Shown: piece after piece, positions 20,299 to 64,000 of the stretch
Numbering within the stretch: the stretch's first letter is position 1
Layout: each line of letters starts with the position of its first letter
Assembly: GCA_900323505.1 (NCBI GenBank)
Contig: OOIN01000001.1
Location: 682,001-746,000, forward strand
Reading direction: 5' to 3'
From: Ustilago trichophora
Taxonomy: Eukaryota; Basidiomycota; Ustilaginomycetes; Ustilaginales; Ustilaginaceae
DNA: 64,000 bases
Notes under the pieces: generated by a model
The model's input: the letters and a program-made list of their open reading frames with translations, nothing else
What the model was told of the DNA's origin: nothing
Databases searched by the model: none
Program-made: the position numbers and the translations under genes

Positions 20299-20826
20299 AC
20301 CACCCATCCATTAGGTTACGATCGGTTTTTTCCCCCCCGCAAGGTTTCAACCAGTCACATTCTCTTTCCTTTCTTTTTTCTTTGCTGTACACGGTGCGCT
20401 TGTGACTTGAATGTTATGGACTGTTGTTGTGCTTCAAGAGTGAATCGTGAATATGAAGCCTGATGATGTGTGGCAAGTTTGGAGCCAAATCCAAGAATTG
20501 GCTGAGGCCAGCCGCTCCGTAGGTCGATTTTATCTCGCTCGAGCATGGTGCAACTTTGCAAACGTGCACAAGTGGACAAGTGTGATTCACAACGTGAAAA
20601 GAGGGGGGGGAAAATGCGTCACAAAGTCACGCTTTGAAGCCACGGGCCATAGCCCACGGCAAGGTGGATTTGGAGGAAGCCAGCCAATTGGGGGTGGGGC
20701 TTTGAGGGTGGTTTTGTGACGGGAATTTTTTCTCAGGATGAGGGGGGGAACAAGACAAGCAAGCAAAGATTGAAAAGATGGCAAAGACATGTTATTTGGG
20801 ACGAAACAGATGGAAATGTTGGCTGG
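20299..20826. other. Convergent intergenic region with one dispersed repeat
   Basis: The 3' ends of the coiled-coil gene and SSK1 face each other here. The interval holds a diverged copy of the family A palindromic repeat (20604-20738) and otherwise nothing I recognise. Confidence 0.7.
20604..20738. mobile_element. Dispersed diverged copy of palindromic repeat family A
   Basis: GCGTCACAAAG...TTTGAAGCCAC on the left mirrors GGTGGTTTTGTGACGGG on the right. The centre keeps GAAGCCAGCCAATTGGGGGTGG, matching the core seen in copies at 60.9, 61.6 and 62.2 kb. It is more diverged than the island copies, so probably older. No coding capacity. Confidence 0.7.
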
Positions 20827-32298: not shown

Positions 32299-32300
32299 GG

Positions 32301-32418
32301 AACTGCAGCACCTAGGATTCCCGCGTGGTCCCCCACCGCAGTACTGACTAGGCGATACTTTGCTTAACTTCGCAGATCGGACGGGATGCGGTGCTTTCAA
32401 GGTTCTATGGCCGCAGAT
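32301..32418 (-). rRNA. 5S ribosomal RNA
   Basis: Read on the minus strand the 118 bases begin ATCTGCGGCCATAGAACC and include AAAGCACCGCATCCCGTCC, GATCTGCGAAGTTAAGC and GTACTGCGGTGGGGGACC, the standard fungal 5S sequence with its internal promoter boxes. A run of 14 T (A at 32285-32298 on the plus strand) follows the 3' end as the Pol III terminator. The gene is solitary, 262 bp upstream of the bZIP start codon and not next to an rDNA repeat, as in other fungi with dispersed 5S genes. Confidence 0.97.
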
Positions 32419-43061: not shown

Positions 43062-43823
43062 ACGTCTCCTTTTCATCCCACCCCCACACCCTTTCCTCCA
43101 TCTGGCCCGAACCTTTCTCACTCATAATGTATCATCAGATCACATCCCATCCTCTTCCCACATTCACTTGTAACGCTCTTAGGGTATAAAAAAACCCTTG
43201 ATTGTTGTTGCAAGCACGGTGCGGATCACATCATACACAACCCAAAATTTACATCTCTGGCTTTTGCTACCCATCCCAAAAACCTGCCTTTCTTGGTCTG
43301 ATCGAGTCCATGCCGTACCATTCTTACAAACACGGTCTTGTGAGTGAGCCAGTAAAAAAAAAGCTTTCAAGAAATACGTGAGCATGGCCAACAACCTTCT
43401 TCGTATCACCCTTTTTCCTCCGTCATGATCCACGGCTCTTGTTGTCATGATTCCTTAAAACACGACGCGAGGTGAAACAGAGTCCGTCAGTTTCGGTTGC
43501 AGCTTGTCAACAGACTTTTCACGAACCATGGTATGCCTGGAGTGGCGAGGTGGCTGCAATGAGAAGCCAGGTGGCTTCAGGGGTGGCTTCGTGACGGATT
43601 TTTCCTTTTTTTAGGATGTGAATGTCACTTTTAAACCTGCTCAATCTCACGAATTGATTCCCCATCTGTAAACAGCCGCAAGTCTCTCTAGAACAGACGC
43701 CTTCTGACACGGCATCAAGATCTGAATTTTCCCTTGTGCATTTTGACTTGGGGTATGACATACGAACTCTTGGAAAATGCATGACTTGACCTGGAGAGAT
43801 GGCGCGCCTAAGATGACTGCAAG
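43062..43823. other. Convergent intergenic region P1 / F-box gene
   Basis: No gene is supported. It holds a half-copy of the family A repeat (43571-43622). Confidence 0.65.
43571..43622. mobile_element. Partial dispersed copy of palindromic repeat family A
   Basis: GGTGGCTTC, GTGACGGATTTTTCC and TTAGGATGTGA match the right arm of the island elements almost base for base. The left arm is missing or reduced to a short GAGGTGGCTGCAATGAGAAGCC part. Its similarity to the 62-kb copies suggests a fairly recent element. Confidence 0.8.
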
Positions 43824-48245: not shown

Positions 48246-50353
48246 TTAGTCGTCGCGGCTCTTGAGTGCAACGGCTGCCTGGATCTCGCGCAATTGGCCC
48301 GTGACATCGGCCTTCATCTTGCCGAGGAGCACGACAAAGTTAAGCATGTCTTCGTCCATGCGCGATCGCTGCTGGTTCCACTCTTCTTCCTTGTGTTCGG
48401 CGGTGAGTTGGAGACTCGTCAATCTCGATTCAGCTTGTTGCAGATGTACGCTTCCCGATGCTTCAGTCTCGTAGGTCGACTTTTCCAGCTTGCCCTCGTC
48501 GGCCTTGTATCGCTCCTGCACCGTTTTGCAGCTCTTTTCGTACTCGGCTGCTTGTCGGGACAGGGCTTCACAGCGCTCTCGGTCAGAAGCCAGCTGCGTT
48601 TCTTGCTCCGAAAGAGCCTCCTGCAGCTTCTCGTACTCCTCCTGCATCGTGAGTCGCTTCTTGGACGCTTGGCGGTACTTGTCAGCCTCTTGCGATCGCA
48701 GCGTCTCGATCTGTCGACGGAAAGATCCCTTGATGTCGACACCCGGTTGCAGCATGGTAGATGGGTTGGAGGGTGTCAGCTCCAGCTCCTCTACAACATT
48801 ACCTGACGCAAGCCTAAACGGAAGAAGTGAGATGGAGCGCGCCAATGGATTGAACTTGGAGATGCGATCCTCTGTGTCGGCCTGCTTCTTTGCGATGGCA
48901 ATCTCGAGTGACCAGCCATCGCCCGCTGCCTTCTTGTTCTGCTCGCCGAGCACTTCGAGACGTTTGCTCAGGCGATTCCTTTCGGCAAGCATCCTCTCGT
49001 ACTCTTCGGCCGACATCTCCTGTGCATTGACCTGTTCCTGCAAGTCGACTCTACGCTTGTCCTTGTCGTCGATCTCCTTCTCGGTAAGGGCGATTTCCTT
49101 GATGAGCCTCTCGATCGCCTTCTTGGTCTTGTCAAGTTTGGGCACAAGAACCTCGTCGTAATACTTGTGAAACTTGGAAATGTCCTTGGTGAGCATGTCG
49201 TTTTCGCTGCGCTCAACCTTGAGCGGCGAGTCGTTCTTGAGGTAATCGGCGAGCTCTGCTTCCAGCTTGAGATGCTCCTGCTGCAAGTCCTTGAGCTCTC
49301 GCTCGATCGAAGCGTTCTTCTCTTCGAAGCGTACTCCGAGCTTGGCATGCTCCTCTGGGTACGTATCCTCGTTCTGCCAGAAGCGATCGTAGCAGTCCCA
49401 AAGGTAGGGGAAGAAGAGGGACTGTAGGTCCTCGATCTCGTCGGGTCGTGACCTGGGACCGGTGCCGATGGTCTCGGCCTGGTTGCCCAAGTTGACCATC
49501 CACTCGAGCATGGCAAGGCAGTAAGGCCAGTGACTCTGACTTCCGGCAGCAGTGAGCTTGGTCTTGCTGAGTTCGTCTGCGGCAGGGTACTTGATCTCCT
49601 TCATCAGTGTGAGCACTTCGTCCTCAAACTTTTTCCCATCTGCGCCCATGACAAAATTAGTGTCGATGCAGCTGGCATAGATGTGCTTGAACATGCCGAC
49701 GAACGCAGACTGTGTGGGCTCGTGTACACCTTTGTTGGCATCCCATCCAGCCATGGTGAATCCTGTGCGCTCGAGATGCTCCTTGACGGTCAGACCCATG
49801 CGGGTCTTGTAGTGTTTATCCTTGATGGGTCTTGTTTCCCTAACGCCCGAACCACCGGTGTTTCCAATGTTTCCTGGTGCAATGGAGAGGCGACCGACCA
49901 TGGATCTTCTAGAGCTGTATTTGAGATGAAAGGGAAGAAAGCGTGAGCAAAGAAGAGATGATACACGGAAGCAAGATGCTGTGGAAGAAGGAGGTCGACT
50001 CACTTTGGTGTGGCGGCAACGGCGACACTCTGACGGCCAGCGGAAGCGACGCTTTGACGACCTGCATACATTCCAGAATCGCCTCGACGAGCACTCTGAG
50101 TTGCTGAGTGTACAGGACCGGAATGCTGTGAGTTCTGCTGTGCATCTCTGATGGTGGCGGATGCGCTGACCTGACGAACTGGGTTGGATTGCTGAGGAAT
50201 CATGGATGCACGAGGTTGGAAGGAGCCGCTGGAAAGCGTCTTTACCGCTTTGACGGCGGATGAAGGTATGGGGAGTGCGGATGCGATGTGTCCATTGTTC
50301 TGATTTGGGTCGATGGCGGCGAGCGTCGAGCGACGCGTGTTTGTGCTCGCCAT
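48246..50353 (-). CDS. NDC80: Kinetochore protein Ndc80/Hec1
   Basis: Ndc80 couples kinetochores to microtubules. Exons 50004-50353 and 48246-49914, joined over an 89-bp intron (GTGAGT...ACAG), give 672 residues. The basic, Ser-rich N-terminal tail (MASTNTRRSTLAAIDP) is the part regulated by Aurora B in other species. The calponin-homology domain follows: ETRPIKDKHYKTRMG, FKHIYASCIDTNF, FEDEVLTLMKEIKYP and the conserved SQSHWPYCLAMLEWMVNL. From about residue 290 the protein is coiled coil (LKDLQQEHLKLEAELADYL and on) that pairs with Nuf2. The intron lies between the tail and the CH domain. Start chosen at 50353; an upstream in-frame Met would add unlikely sequence. Confidence 0.95.
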
Positions 50354-51249
50354 GATGGTTGAAGGGAAAGGAGAGTGTTGAGAGTAGGAGCCGAGATGGA
50401 TGAGACCGGGTGGTGGCGCTATGCCTGGCCGAAGGTTGGAATGATTGGCTCTAAAATTTAATGGTTGCAATGCTGACTTTGTTTGTGGTCGAACAAGAGA
50501 GAAAGATGATGGTAGTATATGGTGGATGGGTTGCTGTCAAAAGAGGGTTGATGGTCATCCAACCCTTTGCGCTTGCCAAAAGAGCAACAAAAACACGCGT
50601 CGCGAGCCAATTCATCGACTTAACAATATCACGTGATGCAAAAATCATGGGGGACAATCGGTGCATCTTGGCAGTTGCTCATTGCCGCTCGTTTCTCATC
50701 ATCATGTACTTGATCATCAGCAGAGTTGAAAAGCATTGCCACAGCGTACATGGTGTTCAGCTGACATGGCGCTGCAGAACTTCAACATTGAGTCATGGAG
50801 CGATATTCTCTCCGACGTTGCTCTATACTGTACCACCGTCTACACCCACAGATCATGTCCAAGTGAGTTTTGCGGAGTTTGTGGCGCAAGCAACTATGAT
50901 TTTGCATCACATCACATTTGCTCCCAACTCTCGGCGCGAGGCACAGCCAATCTAACACCGCTCTGATGACACGCACTCCAAACTGGGCTCATTTCCAACA
51001 TGCACAGCACTGCACAGCACTCCACTCCACTCCTTAGCAACTCAACTCACACTCCACTGTTGCACTTTCCAACTCTCCGTCACTTTGAGTCTCCCACCCT
51101 CATCATCTTTCCATCTGAACTTATCCACCCATCGCAGCCGCGCTGGTCTCGGTCGCAGCGCACTTTGCTACGCCACGGCGAAGCAGCTGCTTCCTAAGTA
51201 ACTCACATCATCACCTCTTGGCATCCACCATCAACTAGTAGCCTTTAGT
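50354..51249. promoter_or_regulatory. Divergent promoter region NDC80 / glucosidase
   Basis: 896 bp between divergent starts. A few short frames occur but none has coding character. TACTGTA at 50825 and small direct repeats (GCACAGCACT) near 51003. No gene seen. Confidence 0.5.
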
Positions 51250-55530: not shown

Positions 55531-57152
55531 GTTGGGCTTGATTGTACAAGGTGGATTGAAAGTAGAAAGAGCAGATGCGATGGCGACAGCTGGACGTTGC
55601 GTGACGAGCCTAAGGTACTGTGGTCGAAATGGAAACGAACGTGTTCTATCCGGTGTTGGGGGAAGGGGAGGGGGGTGAAGCGGAGTGGAGAGGGGGATGG
55701 TAGTGGTGATGGTCGCGAAAAGGAGTGACCCGCGTGAGTTTGTGTAGAGAAAGGGACCGACAAAAGGCACATACTAGGAACGAAGTTACACGGCGGCGCT
55801 TCACGCTGTCCTCAGGGCGAATTGTCGAGCTTGGTGTTGGCGGCACGACGGGAGCAGCAGCAGCAGCAGCAACAGGGCAGAACACACTTGCACCAGCACT
55901 GACAGGGTACAGTAGCATCGCACATAGCAGCACCAGTGCAATGGGACCGACCAGCCTCACTCGCAAAGCCAATGCCAGAGGTCTCTACTCGGATGAGTTT
56001 GAGTGTTGGACAGCCAAGTTCAAGAAAGCGGCTAGTACTGCACTGTACATTGAGGCGAGCCGACCAAGCGAGGCACTAGTGGCAAGGCGACAGACAAGTG
56101 TGATGTACCCATGTCGATCATACTGATCCCGAGTCAGCACAAAAGTCGCGTGTTCCTTGATACAGTTCTTGAAACTGCACCGCTGAAGTTGTACTTGAAT
56201 AATACAAAACGTGCTAAAAAAGACTCTGAATAGACTTGTATTCAGATTAATCAACTTGCTATGCGAGACGCAGCTTAGAATTTGCAAGTCCGTGAAGCGG
56301 GCGCATCTGATTTCCGCGCCGTCTTTTGGTCTCTTCCATTTTTGAAATGCACCAAAAGGCATGTCCGAGCCTCTCCTTTCCGAGGCACGCCCCTTTTTCA
56401 AAAACTCAAATCACCCAATACCGAACCTCGAGAATATACTGTACAGTACTGTACAGTACGATTTCCATATTTTGTTACTACTGTACTTCGAGCCAAGATC
56501 GACAAGGTACTGTGCCGATGCATCTGGTCGGTCGTTCGGCTGCAGGTCGGCTGCCCAAGCGTTGCTGCAGACGACGCGTTCTAAAGAAAGTGGACGCGCA
56601 CCTCACGCACCTCCTTTGGCTTTCTTGGGATCCAAGACCGCATGGTTCTGTGGAATGCCAAGACAAGATTTCTTTAAAAAAAAAAAAAAAATTAAAAGCT
56701 GCAACCTCCTTCTTCTTAGCCTTCCTCCTGGACTTCCATTTCCTTGCTTCTCGATGATTCTGGCGCATCTTTTTGTGTGCGAGTTGTGTGTGTGTGTGTG
56801 TGTGTGCGTGTTGCTATCTTCCTGCCGAGATCCCGATTCAAGCCGCCTGCAGGCACAGGTTGTTTTGCACGCCTGGTGCCGCCATCGTTTCTTGGTTTTG
56901 GTCGGGTTTTCGGCTGTGTGCATGTTGCATCTGCTAGGTGCACCGGCGTCTATCGGTGACACCGCAACATACATTGTAGTGGACGTAGATCACAAAACCT
57001 CAGAACAACCAATAGTCTGGGCACGCTGCGATGTGCTCGTCTTGCAAAAAAAAAAAAAGTACCAAAACTAGTCCGAATCGATGGTGAATGAAAGAGTCGA
57101 AATTTCTTCTTTATGGTGGGGAGCAAAACAAAAAACAAAACAAAAAGAATGG
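55531..57152. other. Gene-free region with TACAGTA palindromes
   Basis: No supported protein gene in 1.6 kb. It includes a GCA run (55855-55869), a self-complementary TACTGTACAGTACTGTACAG cluster at 56437-56460, an A15 run near 56676 and a GT repeat near 56785-56805. Confidence 0.6.
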
Positions 57153-57256
57153 TGACAAGAGTGGGATTCGAACCCACGCCCGAAGATAGCAGGTCCCCCT
57201 GATTGCTCAGGGTATCTTCCTTAATGCTACGCCTTAGACCACTCGGCCATCTTGCC
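57153..57256 (-). tRNA. tRNA-Leu, probably anticodon AAG, with intron
   Basis: On the minus strand the acceptor stem GGCAAGA pairs with TCTTGTC, followed by discriminator A. The D arm is GCCGAGTGGTCTAAGGC, typical of leucine tRNAs, and the T arm GTGGGTTCGAATCCCAC is perfect (B box). The anticodon stem TAGCA/TGCTA encloses TTAAGG, giving AAG at 57220-57222 and a 26-nt intron at 57193-57218, after the purine next to the anticodon. The intron carries a 6-bp hairpin (CCCTGA-GCAA-TCAGGG). The variable arm is short for a leucine tRNA, so the exact intron edges, and thus AAG versus TAA, need confirmation. TTTTT follows as terminator. Confidence 0.88.
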
Positions 57257-57556
57257 TGTGATGTTAGAATTGAGACCTATTGTATATATGTCAATAGATC
57301 AATGACTTTGACAGCACAAGAGCGTTTGCGAGTGATTTTCCATGCACAACAAGACGAGTGGACATGCACCCATGACTCTCGGAAAGACCATGCTGGCACC
57401 GATAACGAGCTAGGATCGATCATGTAGCGGACAAGTACAAAGGTTGATGTGTATTTCAGGGTATAGAATGAATCTGTACAGGACGATAATTACCGACACT
57501 ACTGTGCCTTGCAAAGAGACACAAAGAATGCAAACCCTTCCACCTCTCCGGCTGGT
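57257..57556. other. Spacer between tRNA-Leu and the hydrolase stop
   Basis: 300 bp with no recognised feature; part is presumably the hydrolase 3' UTR. Confidence 0.5.
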
Positions 57557-59515
57557 CTACAAGGCAGCATGCTTGCGGATGCTCTCAAAAACTTCCACAA
57601 CCACATCAGTGCTTGTCATCAAGCTATGGCCGGCACCCTCCACGATGCGCAACGAGCAATCACGCATCTCCCTGGACAAGCTGACGGAACTCGATAAAGG
57701 AATCCGTTCGTCCTTGGAACCGTGCCACACCTCGCACGACACTTGCAAATCTGAGTATCCAAATCCCCATGGTCGTTTGCCGAGCACGAGGTTGAGGTCG
57801 TCTACCAGCCCACGCGCGCTCTCGGCGTGCGACGCTCTAAGCAATTCCAACGCGCTACTCCGCTCCGCCTCCGCCAGCATCGAATTCTTATCCTCGTGGG
57901 TCAGAAAGGGCCGGCTGCCGTCCACAGCATCTCGTGTGGCTGCCTCTTGGCAGTCATCGGATCTGCAAAACGGACCGATGGCAGCACCATTATTTGCACG
58001 TGTGCCCTGCTCCACTGTAGGATCACCAAGGCGCGGAGTACGCTGTCTTGGGGGCGGTGTCGGTTTGCGATGCGCATCGCCACAGACAAGGTCATCGTTC
58101 GCTTGGGTTAGAGCGGTCCTGTGTATGGATTTGGCCCCTTCTTTGTTCAACTTCCAGTTCTGTATCCTCCACTCTGCTGCTTGCGCCGTCTTTATGACCC
58201 CATCAGGAACATAGCGCAGCCATCGGTAGCCGCTGTCCTGCTGCATCCCCGTCCAGGGTGCGAGAAGATGGAGAGGACCTTGGACGCGATGAGGGAAGAG
58301 CAGCGCTAGCGCAGCGGCAAAGGGCGCACCAGCACTGTGGGCAAGGATCGAAAACTTGTCGAGGCCTAAAAGGTCCGCCACTTGCTCCACAACAAAGCTC
58401 CAGCCAAGGATGTTGCGCCCGTCTGTAGAGATGCTGTCAGTGCGTCCAATGCCCCATCTGTCGATGCAGACTAGACGCAGACCGAGAGACACCGCGAGAT
58501 CATCGTAGAGGCCGATCAGATGTCTGGAAGCCCCCAAGCCGAGGAAGACCATGACAGGATGACCACGTTCGATACCCACGTCAGCAAAAGACACCAACAA
58601 ATTTGGTGCACCAGGCACCTTTACTTGAACGCATCGAGTCAGGCCCCTTTTCAATACCGCGCTTCCAGAGTAAGTTTCTCGGACAGGCGATTGCCGTGGT
58701 GACAAGAGATTAGGAGACACAGCCCTGCCATCGAGCTTTGCTCGGGCATCGTGCCGTACGGATCCAGTGCGTGGGTCGATATTTCCAACCGAGAGCTGTG
58801 ACAGTCTACGGTCGAGACGGTCGCCTTGTGCATTCTTCAGAATCGTGCGGGCTTCCTGTTCAATCGAGCCATCTGAGTAGTCTGATTCTGTATCCGATGG
58901 CTCTTCTTTTTGTGGTAGATGCGTTGTGACAATCCTCTGTGATTCACGAGCGGTGTGTTCGAATGCTGACCATGAAACCGAGCATTGTGGACCTCTTTGC
59001 GAGGGAGCGAGGCCCAGCAGGTTGCTCGAATGCGCCCTGACGATTTCCTCGATCGACTTGACGGGTTGTGGTTCGATGGCATGTGGTCGGGCCCGCCCCA
59101 GCGCTTTCGAAGAAGCGGCATAGGTGCTGGATACAGATCGTCGGACCGGTCTGGAGCCAGCGTCGTCGATTGAGTCTGGCAGCCGCAGCGAGGCGCCCGA
59201 ATGCTTGTGCTTTGAATCAGTCGTATAGGTTGTGCTCTCGTGCTGAGAGTCGAGCTGACTGCCTGAGCGAGACCTCCGGATGGTCCCCTCCTTCGATCCT
59301 GGCGTCCGACTGTCGCTGGGCAGGATATTCTCATGCGCCAGAAGGGTAGGTTTGGGTATATAAGGCCCCGTCCGCTTGCGTTCTGGGTATAAGTCGTAGT
59401 AGCTCGTTCCAGGTTGACCAGCATTGGTGCGAGCAACGCCTCCTCCCATCATCCGTGCCCCGTGTCGCGGACCACCAATGGCGTCGGAGGTGGTCCGGGC
59501 AGAAGACGAGCCCAT
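57557..59515 (-). CDS. Alpha/beta-hydrolase fold protein
   Basis: A single frame of 652 residues. The first 290 are disordered and Arg/Ser-rich. The hydrolase core begins near KVPGAPNLLVSFADVG, with the oxyanion-hole strand HPVMVFLGLGASRHL, the strand LRLVCIDRWGIGRTDS, the nucleophile elbow ILAHSAGAPFAAALAL (about Ser394; Ala replaces the usual first Gly), an Arg/Asp-rich lid insert, and the C-terminal catalytic pair in WHGSKDERIPLS (Asp) and VEGAGHSLM (His). All three catalytic residues are present, so it should be active. The substrate is unknown; similar proteins are annotated only generally in fungi. No signal peptide. Confidence 0.85.
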   Translation of the reverse strand: MGSSSARTTSDAIGGPRHGARMMGGGVARTNAGQPGTSYYDLYPERKRTGPYIPKPTLLAHENILPSDSRTPGSKEGTIRRSRSGSQLDSQHESTTYTTDSKHKHSGASLRLPDSIDDAGSRPVRRSVSSTYAASSKALGRARPHAIEPQPVKSIEEIVRAHSSNLLGLAPSQRGPQCSVSWSAFEHTARESQRIVTTHLPQKEEPSDTESDYSDGSIEQEARTILKNAQGDRLDRRLSQLSVGNIDPRTGSVRHDARAKLDGRAVSPNLLSPRQSPVRETYSGSAVLKRGLTRCVQVKVPGAPNLLVSFADVGIERGHPVMVFLGLGASRHLIGLYDDLAVSLGLRLVCIDRWGIGRTDSISTDGRNILGWSFVVEQVADLLGLDKFSILAHSAGAPFAAALALLFPHRVQGPLHLLAPWTGMQQDSGYRWLRYVPDGVIKTAQAAEWRIQNWKLNKEGAKSIHRTALTQANDDLVCGDAHRKPTPPPRQRTPRLGDPTVEQGTRANNGAAIGPFCRSDDCQEAATRDAVDGSRPFLTHEDKNSMLAEAERSSALELLRASHAESARGLVDDLNLVLGKRPWGFGYSDLQVSCEVWHGSKDERIPLSSSVSLSREMRDCSLRIVEGAGHSLMTSTDVVVEVFESIRKHAAL

Positions 59516-60107
59516 TGTCTGGGAAGAAAGTCCTCGATCCTTAGCCGTAGCTGAGTGCGCTTCGATGATGTGACCGGTGCAGTGCTTCGAGTTTGTTCAG
59601 TGGGCGAGCCATGCGGTTGAAATCAAGTGCATGGTAGTCGCTTGATGTCTCGTGCCCTCCCGGACCTACGCAGTATCGGTGTCGCATGCGGCAGTCTTGA
59701 TAAGGGTCGAGAGCTGCATGCCGATTCGACAAGCTGAGTGTGTGAGGTGCTGTTGAGATAGTCGCCGTCTCGACGACAAGGATGTTAGTTGGTGGGTGGG
59801 TGTGAACAACAAACACAGCACAGACTAGTCCGAGTATGGACCTCCTGAGCTTAACCTCACCCGCGTTTCCAATTTTCAGCACCGCGGACGTGCCGTGACG
59901 AAAAGTGGAGACCGCGTCTCGGCTGAACACAGTATCTTCATGCACGCAAGCGTATCCTCGCATTCACATCCTCTGCAACATCATTCGTACCTATCCATGA
60001 TGGTCAGCATAATCGCTCAGACTGCCTGAGCGAGCTGATAGATGAGCTCCTCAGTCATAAGTGAGGCAATCCTGCCTGTGATGCAGTTCTTCGTACTCAG
60101 GACTACA
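59516..60107. other. Spacer between hydrolase gene and repeat island
   Basis: Upstream region of the hydrolase; frames present are short and without coding character. Confidence 0.5.
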
Positions 60108-60248
60108 CCGGCCCGAAGCCACCCTCCGTCAGGGTGGCTACTTTGAGAAGCCAGATGCGAAGCCACCCAAATCGGGGGTGCTGAACCCGTGATTTGTACG
60201 GCTACGGGGCTTCAGGTTGGATTGATTTTTTTTTTTCCCTAGTATTGT
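60108..60248. mobile_element. Family A copy, diverged
   Basis: CCCGAAGCCACCCTCC on the left mirrors GGGGCTTCAGGTTGG on the right; the core has GAAGCCACCCAAATCGGGGG. Ends are degraded. Confidence 0.65.
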
Positions 60249-60542
60249 GATTTCCGAGACGACAGCAAGTCGCCTTGCCAAAGCACTTTTTTGCCCCGTT
60301 GGGTTCTTATCGTGAGTGACCGGAGAAAAAAGGGCATCTTCAACACGCCGCCTCCTCTCCTCGGCGGCCATCCCGCATCTAACTTCTTGACCCTGGACCA
60401 TTACGATGACATTCAATTAGAGTGCTGAAAACAGTAGCAGGCATCACAAAAACAGTCCCAATTGGGGAGCTGGGATCACGAACAGGTCAGATTTCTTCCC
60501 GGTTTCCTCCTGAAAAAGGAATAATAGGCTACTCTCATGAAC

Positions 60543-60703
60543 TAACGGGAGTGGTCCATAACAGAGTCAGGCCCATTAAAGGATCAGCAATACAAAATAT
60601 GCACGCATTTGTATTCCTACTTGAAATTTTTTGAACATTTCAGGGGAAAATTGTATTTGTGATTCTTTAATGGACCTGACTCTGATGTGAGCCACTCCCG
60701 TTA
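60543..60703. mobile_element. Family B copy, complete palindrome
   Basis: Starts TAACGGGAGTGG and ends CCACTCCCGTTA; inside, CAGAGTCAGGCCCATTAAAG mirrors CTTTAATGGACCTGACTCTG. The arms are about 60 bp each around an asymmetric A/T-rich centre with GCACGCATTTGTATTCC. Confidence 0.85.
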
Positions 60704-60903
60704 GCATCAATCATGACTTGTTGAAATGACTGAATCACCTCTTTATCATGGGACGTCACGTCAAATTATTGAACAACACACCTTGAACTAGACCTGCACA
60801 GTAAGATGACAAAAATTGGTCATTTTCTTTGTCCTTTGTGAGGAGACTTTTCAGGGGAATCACACATCATCAAAAAAGAAGTGAATATTTCGTCGCGAGC
60901 CAT

Positions 60904-61031
60904 TCACTTTCAAAAATGAAAAATCTGTCACGAAGCCACCCAGGGTGGCTACACCACCAAATCCAGCCAAATCGGGGGTGGCTTCGAGGGTAGCTTCGTG
61001 ACAGATCTTTGATTTTTTTTTTCAAATGTGA
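60904..61031. mobile_element. Family A copy
   Basis: TCACTTTCAAAAATG at one end and TTTTCAAATGTGA at the other. CTGTCACGAAGCCACCC mirrors GGGTAGCTTCGTGACAG, so the inner arms are better kept than the tips. Confidence 0.85.
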
Positions 61032-61140
61032 GTGACTGCAAATCCATGATCGGGTCGGGTCAACTCATTACGTTAGCTAGACTCGTGATTTCATCTGACT
61101 TGAACAACGACTTGTTCGTCACGCAGACACTACCATCCAT

Positions 61141-61337
61141 ATCCTTAAAAAAAAAAAGGGTTGGACCCCGGAGCCACCCTAGCAGCCACCCTCGGTGGTT
61201 GCTCTGGGGGAGCCACCGCGCAAGCACCCCCAATCTAGGTGCTTGCTCTGCTCTGGGTGGCTGCTCGGTGGAGCCATCCGGGTGGTTGGTTGCTAGGGTG
61301 GTTCCCGGGACAACTTTTCCTTTTTTACGATGTGATT
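61141..61337. mobile_element. Family A variant (GTTGGACCCC arms), about 197 bp
   Basis: Left arm AAAAAGGGTTGGACCCCGG then AGCCACCCTAGCAGCCACC; right arm GGTTGCTAGGGTGG then CCCGGGACAACTTTTCC and the ACGATGTGA tip. It shares the tips of standard family A but has a different arm sequence and a longer core with AAGCACCCCCAATCTAGGTG. Confidence 0.8.
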
Positions 61338-61529
61338 GCATGGCCCACACACCAGACTAGCTGATCAGTGATTCTAACGAATGACTCCACAAGTCCTTCA
61401 CGGACCTGCCACAAAGTCGGAACTCCCATGTTCTAGACATAACTTAAAAAGAAAAAATACATCCGCGTAGCCACCTTTGGAGCCATCCACCTGGCTAGGG
61501 TATGTGAGCCACCGTAGTAGCCACTCGAT

Positions 61530-61641
61530 TCACATCGTAAAAAAAGGAAAAATCCGTCGAAAAGCCACCCTTGAAGCCACCCCCGATCAGCTGGCTTTCT
61601 GTGAAGCCACCCTAGGTGGCTATGGTTTTTTTACGATGTGA
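61530..61641. mobile_element. Family A copy, 112 bp
   Basis: Perfect tips TCACATCGTAAAAAAA and TTTTTTTACGATGTGA; left arm GGAAAAATCCGTCGAAAAGCC, core GAAGCCACCCCCGATCAGCT. Confidence 0.88.
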
Positions 61642-61837
61642 TTGGTATTTTTCTTTTTCCAGGATGTGATTGTGTGTCTGGGCACTTGAAGGGCGTGTCA
61701 AAGCTTGAGGAAAACATGACAAATCTGTCTGTACGTAGCAGATTGAGGCTCAAAACATACCATTTTTGTCATTGAAGACCGAGAGTTGCGTCCGCGAACC
61801 CACACAAGCAACCACCCCCGGTTTAAGGGTAAATCAA

Positions 61838-62033
61838 CTTAGTTAACGTGACTGGCCCATTAACGGGTCAGGCCCATTAGTGGGTCAGCACTACAATTTT
61901 TGCGAAAAGTGTTCAAAAGATTTGAAGCTGAAATACAAAAGCTCCTCAAATTTGTATGAGTGACCCACAAATGGGCCTGACCCACAAATGGGCCTGACCC
62001 ATTAATGGGCCAGTCCCGTTAAGTTAACTTAAC
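61838..62033. mobile_element. Family B variant with doubled arm motifs
   Basis: AGTTAACGTGACTGGCCCAT on the left mirrors ATGGGCCAGTCCCGTTAAGT on the right. GGGTCAGGCCCATTAGTGGG is mirrored by CCCACAAATGGGCCTGACCC, with one arm unit duplicated on the right side. Confidence 0.82.
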
Positions 62034-62149
62034 CCACAGGCATCCACCCCGATTGAGTGATTGCTTGGGTGAGCAGTGGGTGAGCAGATGAAACTTGTCC
62101 CTTCTGAGAATAACTTAACCTAAGTCGGCGTTAACTTAACTTATATGAA

Positions 62150-62262
62150 TCACATCGTAAAAAAAAGAAAAATCCGTCACGAAGCCACCCTCGAAGCCAG
62201 CCAGATCGGGGGTGCCTTCAAGGGTGGCTTCGCGACGGATTTTTCCGTTTTTTACGATGTGA
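62150..62262. mobile_element. Family A copy, 113 bp, best-preserved palindrome
   Basis: The two arms, each about 43 bp from TCACATCGTAAAAAA through ATCCGTC to GAAGCCACCCT, match with only about four differences. The centre is GAAGCCAGCCAGATCGGGGG. It directly abuts a truncated family B element on its right. Confidence 0.92.
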
Positions 62263-62267
62263 TTACA

Positions 62268-62381
62268 GAATCACAAATACCCCGAAGTGTTCGAACAATT
62301 TCAAGTAGGAATACAAATGCGTGCATATTTTGTATTGCTGATTCTTTAATGGGCCTGACTCTGTTATGGGCCACTCCCGTT
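62268..62381. mobile_element. Family B copy, left end missing
   Basis: From AATCACAAATAC onward this matches the reverse complement of the 60543-60703 copy closely, to the shared CCACTCCCGTTA end. The left 35 bp or so expected for a complete element are absent where the family A copy begins. Confidence 0.85.
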
Positions 62382-62506
62382 AGTGGGTCACTAACACAAT
62401 TTTTGCGAGAAGTGTTCAAAAAGTATGGGTTGAGGCTCCTCAAAATTGTATTGGTGACCCACTCTGTGACTTATGGGCCCGACCCGTAAGTGGGCCAGTC
62501 ACGTTA
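62382..62506. mobile_element. Family B variant, short palindrome plus half arm
   Basis: GTGGGTCACTAACACAATTT mirrors AAATTGTATTGGTGACCCAC; a further GGGCCCGACCCGTAAGTGGG and CCAGTCACGTTAAG complete the right side. Confidence 0.75.
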
Positions 62507-62564
62507 AGAGAGGCTCCTCCTGGAAAAAAGGGAAATTTCAACCCGAAGCCCCGTAGCCACCTCC

Positions 62565-62636
62565 TAAGAAAAGTAAAAGTTGGACCCCGGAGCCACCCTG
62601 GCGACCACCTGAGGTGGCTTCTCAACAGAGCCACAC
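62565..62636. mobile_element. Half copy of family A variant
   Basis: AAAAGTTGGACCCCGGAGCC matches the left arm of the 61141 copy; the right arm is lacking. Confidence 0.7.
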
Positions 62637-62769
62637 TCATATCCTAAAAAAAGTAATAATCCGTTATGAAGCCACCCGGGGTGGCTTCATGGGTGGCTTC
62701 ACAACGTAGCCACCCGGGGTGGCTTCGAGGGTGGCTTCATGACGGATTTTTCCTTTTTTAACGATGTGA
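62637..62769. mobile_element. Family A copy with internal duplication
   Basis: Tips TCATATCCTAAAAAAA and TTTTTAACGATGTGA. The block GTAGCCACCCGGGGTGGCTTC and its partner occur twice inside, which suggests a duplication of the palindrome centre. Confidence 0.82.
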
Positions 62770-62780
62770 CTCTGTGACTC

Positions 62781-62929
62781 TAGCAACCACCCTGGATGGT
62801 TGCTCCGAGCAGCCACCCAGAGCAAGCACCTAGATTCATAATCACATCGTGCATTGGGGGTGCTCGCGGGGTGGCTCCCCCAGGGGTGGTTGCTAGGGTG
62901 GCTTCGGGGTCCAACTTTTACTTTTTTTT
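62781..62929. mobile_element. Family A variant (GTTGGACCCC type)
   Basis: CTAGCAACCACCCTGG mirrors CAGGGGTGGTTGCTAG. The right side continues into GGCTTCGGGGTCCAACTTTT; the core carries AGCAAGCACCTAGATT and an ATCACATCGTG remnant. Confidence 0.75.
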
Positions 62930-62930
62930 G

Positions 62931-63027
62931 GTTAAGTTAACGTGGCTGGCCCATTAACGGGTCAGTCAGGCCCATTCACGTTAACTTGATTTTCCCGCTT
63001 GAGTCAGGTCGTGAATTAAGTTAACTT
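62931..63027. mobile_element. Family B fragment
   Basis: TTAAGTTAACGTGGCTGGCC, GGGTCAGTCAGGCCCATTCA and AATTAAGTTAACTT are family B end and arm motifs in shortened form. Confidence 0.7.
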
Positions 63028-63310
63028 ACATCGTGTAAAAAAGCGTCGCGAAGCCAACCTCAAAGCCACGTAGCCAGCTGATTCATATACTAAAAAAGGA
63101 GATTGTCGACCCGAAGCCACCCTCTGTAGCCACCCAGGGTGGCATCGCAACGAAGCCAGCTATGAAGCCACCCCCGATCGGCTGGCTTCGCAGAGTGGCC
63201 ACCCTGGGTGGCTTCGAGGGGTGGTTCGGGTTGGCGTTTTTCGTTTTTCAGGATTTAGTTGGGGGTGGCTTCGGCTTCGCAACGGATTTTTCCATTTTTA
63301 CGATGTGACT
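63028..63310. mobile_element. Composite of two or three family A copies
   Basis: A left half (ACATCGTGTAAAAAAGCGTC) is followed by a full but diverged copy with ACCCGAAGCCACCCTC and GGGTGGCTTCGAGGGG arms around CCCCCGATCGGCTGGC. A right half then ends ACGGATTTTTCC and TTTTTACGATGTGA. Confidence 0.75.
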
Positions 63311-63651
63311 TGTGAGGAGATAAATCATTTTTTGAAATGACGCAGACAGAAGGAAAGGGAACGAATCATGAATTTTCGATATTTCCTGGCCTGAATGCGC
63401 GAGTTCCTGAAGTAATAATCATACTTTCGACTTCAACATCAAACATCACTGACAGCGTCACATCCGATGAGCTGATGCAGTCCCCTGAGAGCAGGCACTC
63501 AGCGGTGCACGAGATCAGCCCAAGCCCAAACGAGGTGCCGGCAACATCATCTCTTGCTGGCTGCTCTTTGACGCTCGTCTCCGATGGGACGAGGAAGGTT
63601 ACGCTGTAGTTTTAATCGGATTGAGATCGGTATCATCGACCGGTGTCAGAT
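63311..63651. other. Unassigned sequence after the repeat island
   Basis: A 90-codon frame (63337-63609, plus) is present but has no recognised motif; it may be chance. Confidence 0.4.
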
Positions 63652-64000
63652 TCATGCCCTCATCCACTGAATCAAGGGCGAGCCGACCTGTTGGAGCCCT
63701 GCAGAAGGATGCGATAGACTTACCCTCTCGTTGAGCACAAGATCTTCGAGGTTGTGCTTGGTCTCCTCACTGGAGGTATCGCGATTTCGCCACGGGTCAG
63801 GGTGAGCACCACAGCCACGAGTACTGTGTTGCTGGGTGGGAGATGAGGAACTGGGTCCAGCAAAGCCAGGGTAGCGACTTGATGCATTAAACTGCCTAGG
63901 TGTCATGCGAGCCGTCGGAGGCTCACGAGGATGCGATGATACAATACCAAGTGCTGGATTTCGAGGACTACCGTGCAAGTATGCCGGTAAAGGTGTTGCG
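63652..64000 (-). CDS. Possible partial gene running off the right edge
   Basis: The minus-strand frame is open from the window edge (reading ATPLPAYLHGSPRNPALG) to a stop at 63652, about 116 codons, Ser/Pro/Arg-rich and without a recognised domain. A consensus donor (GTAAGT) interrupts it after LEDLVLNER near 63722, so the true 3' end may use another exon, for example from an acceptor near 63608 (ACTACAG). Its reality and its end are both uncertain. Confidence 0.3.
   Translation of the reverse strand, partial: ATPLPAYLHGSPRNPALGIVSSHPREPPTARMTPRQFNASSRYPGFAGPSSSSPTQQHSTRGCGAHPDPWRNRDTSSEETKHNLEDLVLNERVSLSHPSAGLQQVGSPLIQWMRA

What the first reader, a model, noticed from the sequence alone, without database searches (positions are those of the whole stretch)
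60108..63310. Dense island of two families of near-palindromic repeats
About 3.2 kb is almost wholly made of 110-200 bp elements whose two arms are reverse complements, alternating between families A and B. Seen directly: shared tips, shared arms and different cores across about ten complete or half copies. No coding frame and no transposase motif. Each transcript would fold into a long hairpin, so the island could seed small RNAs, be a landing site for non-autonomous foldback or MITE elements, or act as a boundary. I know of no described smut element with these motifs, but cannot search.
Basis: partly seen in the sequence, partly recalled or inferred. Interest (0 to 1): 0.78.

Follow-up and report, generated by a model that had tools for sequence, protein, structure and literature searches.

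The report
Centromere islands built from hairpin transposons
In a smut fungus genome, a 3-kb patch made largely of small hairpin-shaped transposon relics recurs at a single place on most contigs, and it is likely the centromere, the point by which each chromosome is pulled apart at cell division.

Summary
In detail: 60108-63310 is a dense nest of near-palindromes. It is not a local oddity. Of 60 exact matches to a B motif, 58 lie in islands that make up 0.26% of the genome. Clusters of at least 3 exact hits number 28, on 28 different contigs; random placement by length occupies 19 on average, 26 at most. Of 8 islands whose counterpart in the second chromosome set was located, 5 lie between the same flanks on both sides, 2 on one side, 1 does not, while the island sequence has turned over. 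Both families carry transposon hallmarks: A has 3-bp target duplications (19 of 26); B has TA flanks (22 of 26) and shares its 42-bp ends with a pogo-type transposon inside another island. These are likely short centromeres colonised by two MITE families. Kinetochore binding is untested; 5 of 45 contigs show no island and one island breaks synteny.

The parts
60108..63310 (.). Repeat island, likely centromere core or part of it (C1:742108-745310)
   Evidence: homology to C2 stops at 59911 and resumes at 63330
60542..60704 (.). B-type palindrome, tips CTAACGGGAGTGG
   Evidence: I8, arms 85% complementary; copies on other contigs
60912..61017 (.). A-type palindrome
   Evidence: I24, arms 90% complementary
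61138..61340 (.). A2-subtype element
   Evidence: copies such as C28:355056-355252 and C23:585974-586165, 85%
61531..61640 (.). A-type element, ATT on both sides
   Evidence: flanks, read with the tip boundary (not among the 26)
61846..62019 (.). B-type element flanked by TA
   Evidence: 124 matches in the genome
62151..62261 (.). A-type element; outer triplets AAT and ATT, so no exact target duplication
   Evidence: RNA fold z -13.1; 147 matches
62262..62384 (-). Partial B copy
   Evidence: 89% to 60541-60671; I1
62469..62507 (.). Arm of a partial B copy
   Evidence: I19
62563..62931 (.). A2-type arms (62563-62609 and 62885-62931) around nested A copies
   Evidence: I13, 89%
62638..62768 (.). 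A-type element with ACT target duplication
   Evidence: RNA fold z -11.5
62931..62965 (+). Half B copy
   Evidence: I20
63087..63254 (.). A-related palindrome
   Evidence: I3, arms 70% complementary
57557..59521 (-). Left neighbour gene, alpha/beta-hydrolase type (relative SRS1_11604 in Sporisorium reilianum)
63652..64000 (-). Right neighbour gene, RRM protein, 3' end facing the island; runs off the window (relative SRS1_11605)

Best explanation
The island is a nest of two families of short inverted-repeat transposon relics (MITEs) that recurs at a single place on most contigs of this genome, and it is likely the core, or part, of a short centromere. SHOWN: one cluster per contig on most contigs; the same flanks in the second chromosome set for most pairs located; island sequence replaced while position is kept; transposon ends and target duplications; a coding pogo-type relative of family B inside an island. 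INFERRED: kinetochore chromatin (CENP-A) sits on these islands; B, and to a lesser degree A, persist there because they insert into or survive in centromere chromatin; hairpin transcripts would be cut by the RNAi machinery, whose Argonaute is present, and so would help to keep silent chromatin around the kinetochore.
For: 58 of 60 exact B hits, 84 of 100 listed exact A-body hits and 54 of 79 exact A-tip hits lie in 39 intervals totalling 0.26% of the genome. Clusters of at least 3 exact hits (gap up to 5 kb, span at least 300 bp): 28 on 28 contigs, random mean 19.1, maximum 26 of 20,000 trials. B alone, gap 20 kb: 31 clusters on 29 contigs, random mean 20.4, maximum 28. Both flanks conserved for C1/C2, C6/C7 and C15/C16, C5/C8, C3/C4; one flank for C13/C14 and C20/C23. 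Flanks of the C8 island predicted an unrecognised island at C5:475658-478916; when read, 33% of it was covered by island repeats. Longest frame at most 186 aa in 22 of 25 islands read. A dispersed pogo transposon has 9 of 24 listed copies within 15 kb of islands, 0.7 expected (8 of 23 without the copy through which I found it).
Against: No CENP-A, Hi-C or expression data. C17, C22, C25, C41 and C44 show no island, two of them about 0.7 Mb (C22 and C25 are short); C29 is weak; C43 has two clusters. The C24 island's flanks map to C19:451 kb and C35:158 kb, where no A or B copy was listed. C10/C11, C19/C24 and C26/C27 were all read without a flank match to each other, though whether they are partners is not known. 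Many islands lie near contig ends: 15 of 39 within 10% of contig length. Islands are only mildly AT-rich (GC 0.446-0.509). A copies also occur elsewhere (25 of 79 exact tips outside). A held paper describes Ustilago centromeres as large, and RNAi-proficient relatives are reported to have long ones.
Confidence: 0.74

Rival explanations
1. The islands are safe havens or insertion hot spots for self-nesting MITEs that have nothing to do with the kinetochore, such as recombination-cold or silent sites.
For: A and B are mobile elements with target duplications and sit inside one another; A also occurs alone elsewhere; five contigs lack an island.
Against: Self-nesting does not predict one cluster per contig whatever its length, nor the same place in two diverged chromosome sets. 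A dispersed pogo transposon shows that ordinary elements here scatter over many sites.
Confidence: 0.18
2. The islands flank or replace the real centromere: they are pericentromeric repeats, and the kinetochore sits on neighbouring unique or transposon DNA.
For: Transposons accumulate within 15 kb of islands, and several islands are split by larger inserts: C4 15.5 kb between flanks, C11 with a Copia element.
Against: In C1, C2 and C5/C8 conserved gene-bearing flanks come within 0.7 kb or less of the repeats on at least one side, leaving little other DNA.
Confidence: 0.07
3. A local expansion of one repeat in this window only.
For: Repeats are dense and share arms.
Against: The same elements occur on most contigs.
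Confidence: 0.01

Closest known systems
Short regional centromeres of Malassezia sympodialis (PMC7025860, passages seen)
   Same: Basidiomycete, 3-5 kb, gene-free, conserved in position
   Different: Malassezia ones are AT-rich with a 12-bp motif and without inverted repeats; these are built of palindromic MITEs and only mildly AT-rich
Inverted-repeat centromeres of Candida tropicalis (PMC4741521, abstract seen)
   Same: Inverted repeats shared among chromosomes, a few kb
   Different: There one 2-5 kb unique core lies between long repeats; here many 110-230 bp palindromes are nested with no common core
Predicted Ustilago and Salmacisia centromeres (PMC7025860 and PMC10849329, passages seen)
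   Same: Smut relatives, transposon-rich, gene-poor
   Different: Described there as large regional type, or 32-181 kb with LTR elements; here 1-3 kb of MITEs in most cases
pogo transposons and CENP-B (recalled; domains)
   Same: Transposase with Psq and Tc5-type helix-turn-helix and DDE_1 domains; TA flanks; short derivatives with the same ends at candidate centromeres
   Different: Here the transposase lies between matching ends as an element, not as a host gene; binding of the ends is untested

Membership tests
MITE (family A) | Terminal inverted repeats, short, non-coding | tested here: met
MITE (family A) | Target-site duplication | tested here: met
   Exact 3-bp repeat in 19 of 26; shuffle mean 5.3, maximum 13 of 10,000; 1 and 0 of 26 at shifted positions
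MITE (family A) | Autonomous relative with the same ends | tested here: inconclusive
   None seen; no dedicated search was left. The dispersed pogo element TE1 has other ends
pogo-derived MITE (family B) | TA target site | tested here: met
   TA on both sides in 22 of 26 rows, two of which share an end
pogo-derived MITE (family B) | Ends shared with a pogo-type transposon | tested here: met
   42 bp, 95% identical, both ends of C18:11208-13300; 648-aa frame with DDE_1 and HTH_psq above cut-off, HTH_Tnp_Tc5 just under it
Fungal short regional centromere | One per chromosome | tested here: met
   28 strict clusters on 28 contigs; about 40 of 45 contigs by looser reading; exceptions C17, C22, C25, C41, C44 (none) and C43 (two)
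Fungal short regional centromere | Gene-free | tested here: met
   Longest frame at most 186 aa in 22 of 25; the others are C2 (262 aa), a Copia element and the pogo transposase
Fungal short regional centromere | Position conserved while sequence changes | tested here: met
   5 pairs both flanks, 2 one flank, 1 against
Fungal short regional centromere | CENP-A and kinetochore binding | not testable with these tools
   Needs ChIP or Hi-C
Malassezia-type centromere | Strongly AT-rich core without inverted repeats | tested here: not met
   GC 0.446-0.509 over whole islands, many inverted repeats
Candida tropicalis-type centromere | Unique core flanked by one long inverted repeat | tested here: not met
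   Many short nested palindromes instead in the window

The most novel reading that the evidence does not exclude
A centromere assembled from the ends of a pogo-type transposon: family B elements, almost confined to the islands, carry the ends that the transposase would bind, so a CENP-B-like protein and its DNA box would be caught here before domestication, with hairpin transcripts feeding RNAi at the same sites.
Probability: 0.2. Interest if true: 0.92.

Novelty: new variant of a known kind. Interest (0 to 1): 0.76.

Why it matters
If true, it gives candidate sequences for most centromeres of a smut in one step and shows a repeat architecture, nested MITEs, of which the listings of searches showed no described case in a smut or at a fungal centromere (the library is partial). 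It puts 1-3 kb candidate centromeres in an Argonaute-bearing fungus, against the proposed link between RNAi loss and short centromeres (PMC6107279, passages). And it places a pogo-type transposase, the class from which CENP-B is thought to come (recalled), beside island-restricted copies of its own ends, so that the origin of such a system could be tested directly.

Tried and rejected
Rfam scan of the window: only a 5S rRNA and a tRNA, both outside the island. Subtelomeric origin: rejected, since 24 of 39 islands lie more than 10% of contig length from the nearer contig end, C1 at 28%. First look for target duplications used TCA as the tip and found almost none; the flanks printed there and the lone copies showed by eye that the tip is CACATC, which was then counted. 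Three of its 26 copies (L020, L066, L072) are lone copies used to set the boundary; without them it is 17 of 23, and other flanks had also been seen, so the boundary is not blind. The '39 islands in 39 contigs' test printed is circular, because I drew one island per contig, and is not used. The A-body list was cut at 100 rows (to C41), and one-mismatch rows were cut too. The dispersed pogo element TE1 was considered as the parent of A and rejected: its ends differ. TE1 was noticed because one copy lies beside the C24 island, so its enrichment is also given without that copy. One of 15 control pieces scored 0.353; its place was not printed, and I presume it overlaps the C1 locus that is itself in the database. 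Island limits are my approximations.
Full report
OBSERVATION. Window 60108-63310 holds many inverted repeats whose arms pair with one another and with arms of neighbouring copies (38 pairs of at least 25 nt in 59800-63700, 25 listed). Two families are visible. A has tips CACATCGTAAAAAA and arms with GAAGCCACCC; an A2 subtype carries GTTGGACCCCGGAGCC. B has tips ACG(G/T)GA(C/G)TGG and arms with GGCCCATTAANGGGTCA. Four elements (two from the window, two from C20) folded as RNA give z-scores from -11.5 to -24.4. The longest frame in the island is 121 aa. Rfam finds nothing in it.

SOURCE. The window is C1:682001-746000 of a genome of 38,820,965 bases in 45 contigs; the lengths given sum to that figure. 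Another U. trichophora assembly is reported at 20.7 Mb (PMC8951962, table passage). Contigs here match in pairs, mostly at 80-96% identity in the flanks read. So the assembly appears to hold two diverged chromosome sets.

ONE PLACE PER CONTIG. DNA searches with A, with B and with a 1.2-kb piece of the island return clusters of copies at one place on each of many contigs (only the best 40 first-look candidates are scored, so these are lower bounds). Pattern searches count 306 A-tip, 218 A-body and 127 B matches with up to one mismatch, against 15, 2 and 0 for the reversed patterns. Taking 39 island intervals (102.8 kb, 0.26% of the genome, drawn by me from those hits), 58 of 60 exact B hits, 84 of the 100 listed exact A-body hits and 54 of 79 exact A-tip hits fall inside. 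The fairer test clusters the exact hits without those intervals. With at least 2 hits it is 35 on 34 contigs, against 22.0 and at most 30. B hits alone, gap 20 kb, give 31 clusters on 29 contigs (C43 has three), against 20.4 and at most 28. With C5 (below) 40 of 45 contigs have an island by my reading, C29 weakly. C17, C22 (28 kb), C25 (160 kb), C41 (scattered A copies only) and C44 have none; C43 has a second cluster at 83-86 kb.

SAME PLACE IN THE TWO CHROMOSOME SETS. C1 and C2 align from window 56982 to 59911 (C2:738566-741459, 85%) and again from 63330 on, past the window's end (C2:747008-750581, 80%); between them both contigs have island repeats, over 3.4 kb in C1 and 5.5 kb in C2. C6/C7 and C15/C16 also match on both flanks, C13/C14 on the left flank. 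The C8 island's flanks map to C5:472134-475657 and C5:478917-481969. The 3.3 kb between them, where a single A2 copy had been seen, proved to be 33% covered by island repeats when read; 14 of 15 control pieces of the window gave 0-8% and one 35%. The C3 island's flanks map to C4:90547-93852 and C4:109343-111440, with the C4 copies in between. For C20 the right flank maps beside the C23 copies, while the left flank maps about 180 kb away in inverted order, a rearrangement breakpoint near the island. The C24 island is the counter-example: its unique flanks map to C19:451 kb and C35:158 kb, where no A or B copy was listed. In all: 5 with both flanks, 2 with one, 1 against. Other loci read had no flank partner among the 26 loci compared and were not searched further. 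For the four pairs read on both sides (C1/C2, C6/C7, C13/C14, C15/C16) no alignment of 400 bp or more joins the islands themselves, so position outlasts sequence.

SURROUNDINGS. In 25 islands read, GC is 0.446-0.509 and the longest frame is at most 186 aa in 22. The exceptions are C2 (262 aa), C11 (a Copia-type retrotransposon) and C18 (the pogo-type transposase). A dispersed pogo-type transposon (TE1, other ends) has 24 listed copies; none starts in an island, but 9 start within 15 kb of one where 0.7 are expected, or 8 of 23 without the copy through which I found it. The genes on either side of the window's island have relatives numbered consecutively in Sporisorium reilianum (SRS1_11604 and SRS1_11605), so the island sits between genes that are neighbours there. 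In Ustilago sp. UG-2017b the gene model of the right neighbour (UHOD_11054) runs on into a pogo-type transposase, 34% identical over 238 aa to the one below. As that gene's 3' end faces the island here, pogo-type DNA probably lies at the same spot in another smut; this rests on one predicted gene model, and the U. hordei model (P0126) has no such extension.

WHAT THE ELEMENTS ARE. Paired A copies bounded by CACATC and GATGTG have an exact 3-bp direct repeat outside in 19 of 26 (17 of 23 without lone copies used to set the boundary), mostly of the form ANT. Shuffling the right-hand triplets gives 5.3 on average and 13 at most in 10,000. Two lone A copies are missing from the homologous contig: C20:587529-587654, which is 98% palindromic, and the one at window 43567-43631 (290 bp in C1 against 93 bp in C2). 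I assign A to no superfamily. Of 26 paired B copies 22 are flanked by TA on both sides, and 157 bp is the commonest length, 11 of 26. At C18:11208-13300, inside that contig's island, a 2.09-kb element has two ends whose outer 42 bp are 95% identical to the window's B element. It encloses a 648-aa frame with DDE_1 (8.5e-28), HTH_psq (2e-7) and a Tc5-type helix-turn-helix just under its cut-off. C21:725946-728020, also in an island, is a second copy with a broken frame. So B is a pogo-derived MITE, and the two coding relatives seen sit in islands too.

MECHANISM. The simplest account is that these are the centromeres: one per chromosome, gene-free, kept in place while the DNA turns over, surrounded by transposons, and next to rearrangements in two of the eight cases. 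The MITEs would be centromere-preferring or centromere-surviving passengers that now make up much of the DNA. Argonaute is present as two long open frames (C24 and C19), so hairpin transcripts would have a processing route. These last steps are inference. The transposase's domain set is the one from which CENP-B is thought to descend (recalled), which suggests, but does not show, that B ends could be protein-binding sites at the centromere.

LITERATURE. Held papers describe Malassezia centromeres as 3-5 kb with an AT-rich core and no inverted repeats, and Ustilago ones as large (PMC7025860, passages). A 2017 paper said that Ustilago centromeres remain to be defined (PMC5568439, passages). A 2018 review says that U. 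maydis lost RNAi and cites work linking RNAi loss to short centromeres (PMC6107279, passages). Candida tropicalis has inverted-repeat centromeres (PMC4741521, abstract). Salmacisia centromeres were predicted as 32-181 kb LTR-rich regions (PMC10849329, passages). Searches for MITEs with centromeres in Ustilago or fungi and for MITEs in smuts showed no such case in their listings. The library is partial, and the 2018 PNAS paper on Cryptococcus and Ustilago centromeres is not held.

Noticed in passing
window 48246-50450 (-); C2:742237-742510 (L018): The window carries the kinetochore gene NDC80 (Pfam Ndc80_HEC) about 10 kb from the island, and the C2 island holds two short pieces 89-90% identical to it.
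   Followed up: no
whole genome G000: The assembly is about twice the 20.7 Mb reported for another U. trichophora strain, and contigs pair at mostly 80-96% identity: a hybrid or highly diverged diploid.
   Followed up: partly
C20 (L034) against C23; C24 (L036) against C19 and C35: Synteny between the two chromosome sets breaks at these islands, as if rearrangements had used them.
   Followed up: partly
L036:6614-8875 and 23 other listed places: A pogo-type transposon with ends unlike A and B, dispersed but enriched within 15 kb of islands.
   Followed up: partly
window 43567-43631 and about 20663-20733: Lone A-related pieces inside the window; the first is missing from C2.
   Followed up: partly
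L008:1501-1626 (C20:587529-587654): A nearly perfect 126-nt palindrome standing alone, folding at -119.5 kcal/mol as RNA; perfect palindromes are usually short-lived, so it may be recent.
   Followed up: no
C43:82700-86300 and C43:137597: A second cluster and a further B copy on the 168-kb contig that also has an island at 12-16 kb.
   Followed up: no
window 32300-32418 (-) and 57153-57256 (-): A 5S rRNA gene and a tRNA gene.
   Followed up: no
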